The translations under genes and the position numbers were made by a program. Shown in pieces: positions 32,821 through 43,421 of a stretch of 64,000 nt of DNA. Under the pieces are notes generated by a model. That model had not been told where the DNA came from. It did not search any database and saw only the letters and a list, made by a program, of their open reading frames with translations. The DNA lies in NCBI GenBank assembly GCA_026184775.1, contig JANCYW010000010.1:1-64000 (forward strand), in the 5' to 3' direction. The DNA comes from Cyanidium caldarium (Eukaryota; Rhodophyta; Bangiophyceae; Cyanidiales; Cyanidiaceae). Each line of letters opens with the position of its first letter. Position 1 is the first letter of the stretch.

Positions 32821-33220
32821 ATCGGGCGATCAGGAAAGGAGATGACTATTGATGAGGTGGTACGCGATAGGTAATGGGGGATGGCGCTGGCCACGATACT
32901 TTTCGGTGCCGACAAAAAAGTGCGCTCCACACGCGACCACTCGCCGCGGGCGTGACCCGAGCAGCGCGTCGCACCCGAAACGGTCGCGCCGAATGCGATT
33001 CTTCTGCGGACGAATGCGGAGACGAAGTTCGTCGACGAGAGGGCCGCCGCAGGAGAGACGCGGAGCGTACCGCGGGCTCGCGAGTATCCGCTTGTACGCG
33101 ACCACAACGTCAGCGCTGCATATAAAGTGTGACACCTCAGAGTGAGCAAGCCCTCACTCATCGCAGAGAGATGTCCAACTTGCAAAAAGCATCCGCTCCC
33201 GGAGCGCTCTACCGCTGTCC
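32821..33220. other. Gap between SEC63 and the tRNA gene, no gene seen
   Basis: About 400 bp with short frames only. A TATA-like TATAAAG lies at about 33120-33126. A D-arm-like string at about 33203-33219 on the minus strand has no matching acceptor or T-arm and is not called. It contains the SEC63 promoter. Confidence 0.4.
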
Positions 33221-33226
33221 AAAAAA
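33221..33226 (-). terminator. RNA polymerase III T-run after the permuted tRNA
   Basis: Six T on the minus strand lie 13 nt after the end of the tRNA 5' half, which is transcribed last in this permuted gene. This is the normal polymerase III stop signal and supports the orientation and order. Confidence 0.75.
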
Positions 33227-33239
33227 GAAGCGCGAGCCA

Positions 33240-33335
33240 CCTGAACGTCACGCCTTGGACCGCTCGGCCACACCTGCGTTTTGAAAGCGTGCAGGCGCTG
33301 GGATTTGAACCCAGGAGTGCATACGCACATGACGA
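33240..33335 (-). tRNA. Circularly permuted tRNA-Leu (anticodon CAG)
   Basis: On the minus strand the 3' half comes first (33335 down to 33290), then a 12-nt linker, then the 5' half (33277 down to 33240). The 5' half has acceptor GCAGGTG, a D-arm starting GCCGAGCGGTCC, anticodon stem TGACG and loop TTCAGG. The 3' half completes the stem with CGTCA, then a class II variable arm (GTGC-GTAT-GCAC), T-arm CTGGGTTCAAATCCCAG, acceptor CGCCTGC and discriminator A. Both stems pair fully (one G-U in the acceptor). The gene is broken in the anticodon loop. The trailer TGGCTCGCG and the leader CCGCGGAGCG can pair with one bulged base, as needed for bulge-helix-bulge splicing to a circle. It reads CUG codons. 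Class II with three-base-pair D-stem fits Leu. Confidence 0.93.
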
Positions 33336-33494
33336 CGCTCCGCGGCTCGCTGCGCCCAGTGCGAGCGAAACGAGAACAGCCTATAAAACGCGCCGCGCGG
33401 GATCGCCGTTCCAGCGCTCTGGGGCGCGGGAACCGATTCTTGCGGGACTTGGTTCCCACCCGCATTCGCGCTCCCTTCCCAGTCTCCCTAGCGT

Positions 33495-40634: not shown

Positions 40635-43421
40635 ATGCTGCGCGCCTTCCTGCCGCCTCGCTTCAGCATACCTCCTCTTCTGCGGCACATCAACGACTTG
40701 GTTGTGTGCTGGAGCTTTTTCTCACACCGCGGCTCGATCATCGTCAACTTGTTGTTCATGGTCAAACTAGGTGGCATGAGACAGGCGCCGAGCGATGCAT
40801 TTACGCTGGAGGACGCTGAGCGTGACGTTGGCGCGGTGGTCGACTTCTTGCGGTTCGACAGTCCGATCAAATCGCTGGCCACGCAAGCGTTCATGCCCGA
40901 GTTGTGGCTCACGTCCAACAGAATGCAGCTGTGCGAGTGGTATCGGCAGTTACGGGACGATCCGAGGTTGGAGGGCGCCATACCGAAGCTGCCGGAGAGA
41001 TGGAACGATGCTTCCGAGCTGCACTTGCGGCTGGAATGGGAGGAGGTGATGATAAGAGGAGGATGGCATCAGGCGGTGAACTTCCTGCACTCCCAGTACG
41101 TTGGCTGCATCAAGGAGATGGCGACGAGACGCCTGCTGGAAATCCTGTTGGACTGGATCGACCGCCACCCCGGCTTCACTGACGCACAGCGCAAGCTTTT
41201 CAAAGACGGCATATTTGGCGACATTCGCGACGGCCGTGTGCGGGAGGGGCTCACGGCGCGGCAGTGCCAGATGTTGCTCGCCGTGCTTCGTATTTTGCGC
41301 GGTGGCGGAGAGGATGCCGATGACGGTCGGGCGCTGAAGCGGCAGTACCGCTTTCGCATTCCGTTCTCGCGCCAGGCATACCTGCTGTACCTATTCCTGA
41401 CTTCGCAGCCGCTGCTGGAGACGGAAGAGGAACGGCAGCAGCGCGAGCAGCAGGAGGCTCGGCGGCAGCCCGGTCCCGGGGGACCGCGAGGGTCAGCGCG
41501 CGACGTGCAGAACAGGCACGGACGGCATCCGCACGGGCCAATTACGCAACGTCGGCGCCAACATGCACGCTTCGATGCTGTGATATGGCGCGCCATGCTG
41601 AGCGCTGCCCGTCACGCCAGTGAATTTTTGGACGAGGCCCGCGAGGAGCCGTCCATGATTTTGGTGCCAGAGGGCCGCTCACCCACGCTCAGCGACCACA
41701 TGGGTTACGATACGAAGATGTGGAATGGGCGGCGCTGGTGGTCTCACAGAGGGCGCAACCGGCATTTGCAGCGCCGCATTCACGACGACAACGAAAGCGA
41801 GGAGACGAGAGCGGCGCTGCGGAGGCTGTTGGCGAGACGCAAGCGCTACGGGCCAGTGCTCACTCCGACGAAGGAATCGCTCCTGTTCCAGTCGATCCAG
41901 TCGAACTTCCTGGACGTGCGCGTGTTACGGTCTGAGTTGGTGGACATTACACGGAACAAGCGCGAGCCGCCACACACAGAGGAACAGCTGAAAGCTGCGC
42001 TCGAATTCCTCAACAGACGTCGTGACGAGGAGACACGTGATGAACGCGAGTCCCGGCAAGCGGACCGCATCGCCGCGAGCATGACCGCCCCACCATCACC
42101 GATCCGTTCTGTCGACGGCATTCGCTCTGCCTCTGTCGACTGGGGGCGCGCCAAGCCGCTCACCGGCTGCTGGGTAGAGATGAACAATGGCGTGCTGACG
42201 TCCGACCGCTTCACCTTCACGCGCAACGAGTACGACGACGACAACCACTGCGAAGTGTTCCAGAAATGGCACGAGGAGCGCATGTCGCAGAGCACGACGC
42301 TGGCGAAGGCAGAGCTTGCCGTCTCGCAGAACGCCGGTCTCCGCCATATCGACGTCGTCAAACTCTGCGGGAACATGCTCACCATGAATACGCCGCAGGT
42401 CGCCAAAGCGCGCGACGAGGAGTACATGTACAACGAGGAGCGTCTACGCTGGGAAGAGGACCTCTTCCGGGCGAGGCATTTGACGCAAGACCGCGCCTGC
42501 AATGCATTCTTCCGCTTTATCACCCACGGCAAAGAGAAGCGGGACCCTGCTCTCCCCATGATGGGCAACGCGTCGTTTGCCGCGACTGGCCGGGGCGAGC
42601 GGGTGGTGGGCACCGCCCGCCTGCCGCGCACCCTGATGCGGGCCCACAAGCAGTGGGTGGCGCAGGGCTGGGACATCGACTTGCTGGTGATCGACGAGTA
42701 CCTGACCTCGCAACGCTGCTGGAAGTGCCGCCACTTTACGGAGGACACGGCGGTGCAGCGGCTGAAGGAAGGGAACGGGAGCGTGGAGGTTGACAAAGGC
42801 AACAGCTCCCGCGTGCACATATGCTTGCACTGCCACGAACACCAGTTGAACGCCACCACCTGGGGCGCCATCCGCGACCGGGATATCGACGCTTGTATGA
42901 ATATGGCACTGATGCGGCTGTATGCGTGCGAGAGGGGCAACGAGAGCCTGCGCCCGCCCGAGTTTCCGCGTGAACATGTGGCCGAAGAGCGCCGCCGCGC
43001 AAAAGAAGAGGCTGGCGCTGCGGCCCGTGCGAATGTGAATGTGCGGGCTGCGGCAGCCAGCCGCGCTACCGACCAACAGCGACAGCAACAGGCTGGCGCA
43101 GGCAATGCTGGCAGGCAGGCAGCAGCGCCGTTGGGTGACAGTGACCCATTATCGCATGCGTCATCGGCAGCACTCTCCGCGTTCCAATTGGACACAAACT
43201 CATGCAAGAGACGGTGGAGCGGCGGACGCTGCGAGGAATTGGCACAGAACGACCGCTACAGGGGCAGAGGAGAGAATGGAAACGGATTAGCGGCACGTAA
43301 AGGAAGTGTGTACGACGGACTTGTCAGTGCGAAAAGAGTAGTAAAAAGGAGAGGTCCCAGACTTGCCACCATCAAGCAGTACGAGTTGAGAACGCTTTCA
43401 GCACTGGTGCGGCATACCTGA
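40635..43421 (+). CDS. Fanzor (eukaryotic TnpB-type RNA-guided endonuclease), 928 aa
   Basis: The protein carries a split RuvC nuclease like TnpB and Cas12. Motif I is SVDWGRAKPLTGCW with Asp502. The zinc ribbon has CWKC (695-698) and CLHC (730-733). Motif III is RDRDIDACMNM with Asp750, in the form RDxxAxxN, and is followed by an Arg-Pro as in TnpB. The second acidic residue is probably Glu688 in VIDEYLTSQRC, the shifted position reported for Fanzors. An N-terminal helical part (20-45) fits the family; residues 255-460 are long and partly low-complexity. The basic C-terminus (760-928) may hold a nuclear signal. Fanzors cut DNA guided by an RNA encoded next to their 3' end. Length is above most Fanzors. 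All key residues are present, so it may be active if the upstream TAG is harmless. Confidence 0.9.
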   Translation: MLRAFLPPRFSIPPLLRHINDLVVCWSFFSHRGSIIVNLLFMVKLGGMRQAPSDAFTLEDAERDVGAVVDFLRFDSPIKSLATQAFMPELWLTSNRMQLCEWYRQLRDDPRLEGAIPKLPERWNDASELHLRLEWEEVMIRGGWHQAVNFLHSQYVGCIKEMATRRLLEILLDWIDRHPGFTDAQRKLFKDGIFGDIRDGRVREGLTARQCQMLLAVLRILRGGGEDADDGRALKRQYRFRIPFSRQAYLLYLFLTSQPLLETEEERQQREQQEARRQPGPGGPRGSARDVQNRHGRHPHGPITQRRRQHARFDAVIWRAMLSAARHASEFLDEAREEPSMILVPEGRSPTLSDHMGYDTKMWNGRRWWSHRGRNRHLQRRIHDDNESEETRAALRRLLARRKRYGPVLTPTKESLLFQSIQSNFLDVRVLRSELVDITRNKREPPHTEEQLKAALEFLNRRRDEETRDERESRQADRIAASMTAPPSPIRSVDGIRSASVDWGRAKPLTGCWVEMNNGVLTSDRFTFTRNEYDDDNHCEVFQKWHEERMSQSTTLAKAELAVSQNAGLRHIDVVKLCGNMLTMNTPQVAKARDEEYMYNEERLRWEEDLFRARHLTQDRACNAFFRFITHGKEKRDPALPMMGNASFAATGRGERVVGTARLPRTLMRAHKQWVAQGWDIDLLVIDEYLTSQRCWKCRHFTEDTAVQRLKEGNGSVEVDKGNSSRVHICLHCHEHQLNATTWGAIRDRDIDACMNMALMRLYACERGNESLRPPEFPREHVAEERRRAKEEAGAAARANVNVRAAAASRATDQQRQQQAGAGNAGRQAAAPLGDSDPLSHASSAALSAFQLDTNSCKRRWSGGRCEELAQNDRYRGRGENGNGLAARKGSVYDGLVSAKRVVKRRGPRLATIKQYELRTLSALVRHT

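What the first reader, a model, noticed from the sequence alone, without database searches (positions are those of the whole stretch)
33240..33335. Circularly permuted tRNA-Leu(CAG) gene
The 3' half of the tRNA precedes the 5' half on the minus strand, with a 12-nt linker joining the acceptor ends. Acceptor and anticodon stems pair across the halves, a class II variable arm is present, and a run of six T follows the 5' half. The break lies in the anticodon loop, with a leader/trailer helix suited to bulge-helix-bulge splicing into a circle. Permuted tRNA genes are known from C. merolae and a few picoalgae; a normal tRNA finder would miss this one.
Basis: partly seen in the sequence, partly recalled or inferred. 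Interest (0 to 1): 0.93.

Follow-up and report, generated by a model that had tools for sequence, protein, structure and literature searches.

The report
Scrambled-order leucine tRNA gene
In what is most likely a hot-spring red alga, a leucine transfer-RNA gene is written with its two halves swapped, so its transcript probably has to be joined into a circle to become usable; this kind was already known from a sister alga, and several of the same swapped genes turn up in both.

Summary
On the minus strand (33338-33240) a complete tRNA-Leu(CAG) lies with its 3' half first, a 12-nt linker, then its 5' half, broken at 37/38. A covariance model trained on in-silico permuted tRNAs without Leu finds only this place in the window (38.1 bits, E 1.3e-9). 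Joined, the halves give a canonical 87-nt tRNA-Leu(CAG); in genomic order ARAGORN and Rfam miss it. A TATA-like element lies upstream and a T6 run downstream. The genome fits Cyanidium caldarium 063 E5 (8.79 Mb, 20 contigs). Cyanidioschyzon merolae already has a permuted Leu(CAG) of the same type (linker 9), so this is a new member of a known kind. Added result: 7 of the 10 isoacceptors permuted in C. merolae are permuted at the same junction here: Leu(TAA), Leu(CAG), Gly(CCC), iMet, Ala(TGC), Arg(CCT), Lys(TTT). Gln(CTG), Thr(CGT), Thr(AGT) were not found by a non-exhaustive search. Sen2- and Sen34-like endonuclease genes and RtcB are present. Circular RNA and mature tRNA are inferred, not shown.

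The parts
33382..33386 (-). TATA-like element (TTATA, within TTTTATAGG), 48 bases before the 3' half: likely Pol III promoter element
   Evidence: a TTATA/TATA element lies at -36 to -48 in 6 of the 7 permuted genes examined there
33342..33350 (-). Leader arm of the leader/trailer helix (GCGAGCCGC)
   Evidence: pairs with 33240-33232 in the minimum-energy fold
33290..33338 (-). 3' half of tRNA-Leu(CAG): position 38, anticodon stem 3' side, variable arm, T arm (box B GGTTCAAATCC), acceptor 3' side, discriminator A73
33278..33289 (-). 12-nt intervening linker joining the acceptor ends (CGCTTTCAAAAC); no CCA encoded, no T run of five or more
33240..33277 (-). 5' half of tRNA-Leu(CAG): acceptor 5' side, D arm (box A TGGCCGAGCGG), anticodon stem 5' side, anticodon CAG, to position 37
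33232..33240 (-). Trailer arm of the leader/trailer helix (GTGGCTCGC; its first base is position 37 of the tRNA)
33221..33226 (-). T6 run: likely Pol III terminator

Best explanation
This is the nuclear gene for tRNA-Leu(CAG) of (most likely) Cyanidium caldarium, a circularly permuted tRNA gene of type II (junction 37/38), probably orthologous to the permuted Leu(CAG) gene of Cyanidioschyzon merolae. Inferred mechanism: Pol III transcribes leader, 3' half, linker, 5' half and trailer from an upstream TATA-like element to the T6 run. The transcript folds into a tRNA-like body closed at the acceptor end by the linker, and leader and trailer pair beside the anticodon stem. The Sen2/Sen34-type endonuclease cuts at 37/38; a ligase, most likely RtcB, joins position 37 to 38 and gives a circle. 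RNase P and tRNase Z cut out the 12-nt linker, and CCA is added. Shown here: gene order, complete cloverleaf, promoter- and terminator-like elements, presence of endonuclease and RtcB genes. Inferred: transcription, cleavage, circle, mature tRNA, and RtcB as the ligase.
For: R1 trained without Leu finds only this locus in the window, 38.1 bits, against at most 28.6 on the 22 Rfam tRNA loci; 1 rule-based hit against 0 in 200 resampled windows. ARAGORN calls the joined halves tRNA-Leu(CAG) and finds nothing in genomic order. C. merolae has the same isoacceptor permuted at the same junction, linker 9 bp, no intron. Six further permuted genes of this genome match the C. merolae list in isoacceptor and junction, and three of them also carry an intron in the same arm (Leu(TAA), Gly, Arg). 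Endonuclease genes and RtcB are present. CTG makes 151 of 245 Leu codons in five neighbouring ORFs.
Against: No RNA data. No strict bulge-helix-bulge. The leader/trailer pairing test is modest: 173 of 5040 leader-trailer assignments are at least as stable as the true one, the Leu(CAG) leader pairs as well with the Leu(TAA) trailer (-18.0 against -17.8), and the Lys pair is weak at -2.4. The whole-locus fold is only 2.2 sd below shuffles. R1 is not a general detector: it gives the other type II gene here, Gly(CCC) with its T-loop intron, only 21.5 bits, below its best score on a co-linear tRNA. A co-linear Leu(CAG) elsewhere is not excluded, since several expected Leu isoacceptors were not found at all. 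The C. merolae sequence itself was not at hand to compare.
Confidence: 0.94

Rival explanations
1. A non-functional remnant: two outer-deleted tandem tRNA-Leu copies that happen to keep good halves, not transcribed or not processed.
For: The duplication-and-loss model of origin (PMC3978253, section 10 part 1) passes through such a state; no RNA evidence is at hand.
Against: All stems intact across the halves, box A, box B, discriminator A, TATA-like element and T6 run kept; same gene permuted in C. merolae; six other permuted genes kept alike in this genome.
Confidence: 0.03
2. A split tRNA: the two halves are separate transcripts joined in trans, not one permuted transcript.
For: Split tRNAs exist in some archaea (start of the abstract of PMC3218864, search listing).
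Against: The halves lie 12 nt apart on one strand with no TATA-like element or T run of five or more between, and the linker closes the acceptor stem as a hairpin.
Confidence: 0.02
3. A chance resemblance.
For: None found, apart from the modest fold z-score.
Confidence: 0.005

Closest known systems
Permuted tRNA-Leu(CAG) gene of Cyanidioschyzon merolae (Table 1 of the review PMC3978253; original papers not read)
   Same: Isoacceptor, order of halves, junction 37/38 (type II), no intron, short linker; upstream TATA-like sequence and downstream T stretch are reported for most C. merolae permuted genes.
   Different: Linker 12 instead of 9; another genus.
The set of 11 permuted tRNA genes of C. 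merolae (10 isoacceptors; types I-IV)
   Same: Seven of ten isoacceptors found permuted here, at the same junction type: Leu(TAA) I; Leu(CAG), Gly(CCC) II; iMet III; Ala(TGC), Arg(CCT), Lys(TTT) IV. Gly(CCC) keeps a T-loop intron at 55/56, Arg(CCT) a D-arm intron, Leu(TAA) an anticodon-loop intron.
   Different: Linkers here against C. merolae: Leu(TAA) 62/10, Leu(CAG) 12/9, Gly 8/7, iMet 117/74, Ala 75/8, Lys 71/38, Arg 24/23; introns longer (Gly 38/13, Leu(TAA) 35/21, Arg about 48/27). C. merolae has two Gly(CCC) genes, one was seen here. Gln(CTG), Thr(CGT), Thr(AGT) not found by the searches made.
Permuted tRNA genes of prasinophyte green algae, chlorarachniophyte nucleomorphs and Auxenochlorella
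   Same: Halves swapped; in the review's table nearly all are type II.
   Different: Other lineages; the review's table has no Leu(CAG) among the green-algal and nucleomorph genes. For Auxenochlorella the isoacceptors were not seen (only passages).

Membership tests
Circularly permuted tRNA genes (algal nuclear, type II) | 3' half lies upstream of the 5' half on one strand, separated by a short intervening sequence | tested here: met
   3' half 49 nt, linker 12, 5' half 38; range in the review 1-74 bp
Circularly permuted tRNA genes (algal nuclear, type II) | The two halves together form one complete canonical tRNA | tested here: met
   ARAGORN tRNA-Leu(cag) on the joined halves, nothing in genomic order
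Circularly permuted tRNA genes (algal nuclear, type II) | Junction at 37/38 in the anticodon loop | tested here: met
   place fixed by stem pairing and loop length, not by RNA ends
Circularly permuted tRNA genes (algal nuclear, type II) | Leader and trailer form a bulge-helix-bulge motif at the junction | tested here: inconclusive
   9-bp leader/trailer helix beside the anticodon stem, 1x2 internal loop rather than a strict motif; true pairings equalled or beaten by 173 of 5040 assignments
Circularly permuted tRNA genes (algal nuclear, type II) | Upstream TATA-like sequence, downstream T stretch, no such signals in the linker | tested here: met
   TTATA at -48, T6 13 bases after the 5' half, linker CGCTTTCAAAAC
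Circularly permuted tRNA genes (algal nuclear, type II) | 3' CCA not encoded | tested here: met
   discriminator A is followed by CGC
Circularly permuted tRNA genes (algal nuclear, type II) | Circular RNA intermediate and mature, aminoacylated tRNA | not testable with these tools
   Needs RNA
Circularly permuted tRNA genes (algal nuclear, type II) | Splicing endonuclease and ligase present in the genome | tested here: met
   two PF01974 places; L028 Sen34-like, L029 EndA/Sen2-like; RtcB (L062, 540 bits). Sen54, Sen15 and other ligases not tested
Split (trans-spliced) tRNA genes | Halves at separate loci with own promoters | tested here: not met
   12 nt apart on one strand, no TATA-like element or T run of five between

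The most novel reading that the evidence does not exclude
At least seven permuted tRNA genes, of all four junction types I-IV, were already permuted in the common ancestor of Cyanidium and Cyanidioschyzon and have been kept with the same junctions ever since, while linkers and introns changed length freely. Permutation would then be a long-lived inherited state in Cyanidiales, not a scatter of recent accidents.
Probability: 0.85. Interest if true: 0.55.

Novelty: new member of a known kind. Interest (0 to 1): 0.42.

Why it matters
The single gene shows a known oddity in a second cyanidiophycean genus, and that ARAGORN and Rfam alone would miss a tRNA for what is the commonest Leu codon in five neighbouring ORFs. 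The larger point is comparative. The 2014 review (PMC3978253) weighs ancient against recent origin for permuted tRNA genes and says that the permuted isoacceptors are not conserved among organisms. Finding 7 of 10 C. merolae isoacceptors permuted at the same junction in this genome gives a conserved set within one class, so age, linker drift and reversion can be studied by comparison. My literature searches (open-licence PMC papers only) showed no report of permuted tRNA genes in Cyanidium caldarium in their listings or in the passages I read; subscription papers and supplements were not searched.

Tried and rejected
ARAGORN and Rfam at gathering score miss the gene; Rfam with E up to 1 on 701 bases around it gives only a weak archaeal RNase P match at 33422-33475, taken as chance. 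A first alignment of 7 in-silico permuted tRNAs (A1; the Trp row already left out) was dropped because MAFFT shifted the anticodon stem in the rows with short variable loops; A2 used 10 rows, three with an N put into the variable loop and three (Asn, Arg, Trp) with introns left out by hand. The DNA search with the locus found only itself; it did not even find Leu(GAG), so it says little about other Leu genes. ARAGORN labels that I read otherwise by eye: L012 Ala(CGC) as Ser(CGA) with intron; L013 Ile as Tyr(GTA); L026 Ser as Ile(AAT); L060 Thr(CGT) as Pro(CGG), which resembles the eukaryotic tRNA-Pro sequence I recall. L015 (no ARAGORN call) I read as co-linear Val(AAC) with a D-arm intron. 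L018, L020, L021 and L054 are unresolved.

D-arm pattern searches (up to 3 mismatches): 4, 8, 3, 7, 14 and 0 places; the tool's backward-read controls gave 1, 10, 14, 13, 8 and 1, so the numbers alone mean nothing and each place was judged on its own. By my reading 15 of the 36 places are tRNA genes (some already known from the Rfam search): 4 of 4, 4 of 8, 0 of 3, 3 of 7, 4 of 14. Of the 14 places I read 3 by eye (L048, L054, L060); 13 of 14 (not L057) went through R1 and all 14 through ARAGORN. Rejected: a strict bulge-helix-bulge at the junction.

Full report
What is there. On the minus strand the window reads leader - 3' half (33338-33290) - 12-nt linker (33289-33278) - 5' half (33277-33240) - trailer - T6 (33226-33221). 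Acceptor GCAGGTG pairs with CGCCTGC across the linker; TGACG pairs with CGTCG across the two halves; the T arm is CTGGG-TTCAAAT-CCCAG; the variable arm has a GTGC/GCAC stem. Box A (TGGCCGAGCGG) and box B (GGTTCAAATCC) are intact but in swapped order. ARAGORN and Rfam (gathering score) find no tRNA in the window. Joined as 5' half + 3' half it is an ordinary 87-nt tRNA-Leu(CAG) to ARAGORN; in genomic order nothing is found.

More than chance. I built a covariance model R1 of a type II permuted tRNA from 10 tRNAs of this genome permuted in silico, with no Leu among them. Its only hit in the window up to E 10 is this locus: 38.1 bits, E 1.3e-9. On the 22 Rfam tRNA loci of the genome (four of them permuted in other ways) its best score was 28.6 bits, on a co-linear gene. 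R1 is no general detector, however: the other type II gene found later, Gly(CCC), whose T loop holds an intron, scores 21.5 bits. A rule-based scan, written after the locus was known but using general tRNA consensus, gives this one hit in the window and 0 in 200 first-order Markov resamplings. The free-energy test alone is weaker: z -2.18, 4 of 200 shuffles fold as well.

The organism. G000 has 8,787,356 bases in 20 contigs and the window is 64.5% GC. Cyanidium caldarium 063 E5 is given as 8.79 Mb, 20 contigs or scaffolds, 65.7% GC (PMC13353863 Table 1, passage; PMC9812998 Table 1, passage). Neighbouring ORFs match Tic22 and RETICULATA-like families. Among 20 relatives of the Tic22-like protein (8000 candidates scored), the best is 95% identical but unnamed, and the best named one is from Cyanidiococcus yangmingshanensis, 69% identical.

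Comparison with C. merolae. Table 1 of Soma's 2014 review (PMC3978253; passages; sections 5, 6, 8 and part 1 of 2 of section 10 read) lists 11 permuted genes in C. merolae, among them Leu(CAG), type II, linker 9, no intron. Soma 2007, Soma 2013 and Maruyama 2010 were not read (Soma 2013 not held).

Other permuted genes in this genome. The Rfam tRNA search of the own genome listed 15 places at E 0.001 and 22 at E 10, of 60 candidates scored. ARAGORN called a tRNA in 15 of the 22 loci. Of the 7 others, four are permuted: L014 Lys(TTT), L019 Ala(TGC) and L022 Arg(CCT) with the break at 59/60, and L017 iMet with the break at 50/51; L015 I read as co-linear Val(AAC); L018 and L020 are unresolved. 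D-arm patterns gave two more: L033 Leu(TAA), broken in the D loop at 20/21 and with an anticodon-loop intron, and L048 Gly(CCC), broken at 37/38 and with an intron at 55/56. For all 7 (these six and the window gene) the acceptor 3' side lies upstream of the 5' side, linkers are 8-117 nt, and a run of at least five T begins 5-27 nt after the 5' half; 6 of 7 have a TTATA/TATA element at -36 to -48, the seventh has CTTTATGA. All 7 are called as the expected tRNA by ARAGORN once halves (and introns) are joined, and 0 of 7 in genomic order. The cut within a loop, and the intron ends of the three intron-bearing genes, were chosen by me to restore canonical arms, so for those details ARAGORN's consent is partly by construction; the order of the acceptor halves is not. 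So 7 of 10 C. merolae isoacceptors are permuted here at the same junction type, and three also share an intron in the same arm. Gln(CTG), Thr(CGT) and Thr(AGT) were not recognised in either order. The search was not exhaustive, since the genome could not be scanned with a permuted model, and it would not reliably show permuted genes outside the C. merolae list; none was seen among the places I could read.

Is there another Leu(CAG)? Among the 22 Rfam loci the only Leu gene is co-linear Leu(GAG), L009, and the class II D-arm pattern with up to 3 mismatches (8 places) added only the permuted Leu(TAA). Leu(CAA), (AAG) and (TAG) were not seen either, so this cannot exclude a second Leu(CAG) gene. 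CTG is 151 of 245 Leu codons in five neighbouring ORFs, so such a tRNA should be needed.

How it would work. In algae with permuted tRNA genes, C. merolae among them, pre-tRNAs give a circular intermediate that is opened at the acceptor loop and receives CCA (PMC3978253 section 6). Parts needed are present here: two tRNA_int_endo genes, one nearest to Sen34 chains (L028), one matching an EndA-like chain and then Sen2 chains (L029), and one full-length RtcB. RtcB as the ligase is my inference; other ligases, Sen54 and Sen15 were not sought. The TFIIIC B-block family PF04182 gave no match, in line with the review's statement that TFC1 and TFC3 are not found in C. merolae; this search had no eukaryotic positive control. 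The leader/trailer pairing test supports cognate pairing only modestly: summed duplex energy -73.2 kcal/mol, mean over assignments -62.1, 173 of 5040 at least as good.

What is in print. Searches: 'permuted tRNA' + Cyanidium (3 papers); 'permuted tRNA genes' (33, 31 listed); tRNA + Cyanidium caldarium + Cyanidioschyzon + nuclear genome since 2015 (6); 'permuted tRNA' + red alga since 2014 (12, 11 listed); '063 E5' + Cyanidium (2); 'circularly permuted' + tRNA + Cyanidiophyceae (0). In PMC13353863 'permuted' occurs once, in a reference; in PMC9812998 'tRNA' and 'permuted' do not occur in the main text. Also seen as passages: PMC12636532, PMC4494063, PMC9602550. The rest were seen as listings only.

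Verdict. The more interesting result is that the permuted set is largely shared between the two genera.

Noticed in passing
L014, L017, L019, L022, L033, L048 (all near base 1500): Six further permuted tRNA genes of this genome: Lys(TTT), iMet, Ala(TGC), Arg(CCT), Leu(TAA), Gly(CCC), at the junctions listed for C. merolae.
   Followed up: yes
L017, linker between 3' and 5' halves: The iMet linker is 117 nt, longer than the longest (74) in the 2014 review's table; by eye its ends can pair (GGTGCGCGC with GCGCGCACC).
   Followed up: no
33219-33226 and the ends of other tRNA genes: The terminator T run is followed directly by GG in 5 of 7 permuted genes and 6 of 14 co-linear ones: perhaps part of the terminator.
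   Followed up: partly
window 40635-43421 (+): 928-aa ORF with a weak, below cut-off match to the Cas12f1-like TNB domain (19.9 against 26.3 bits): possibly a TnpB/Fanzor-like protein or chance.
   Followed up: no
L024: A co-linear tRNA gene that by eye looks like Ile(TAT) with several introns, as reported for C. merolae Ile(UAU) (abstract of PMC9602550).
   Followed up: no
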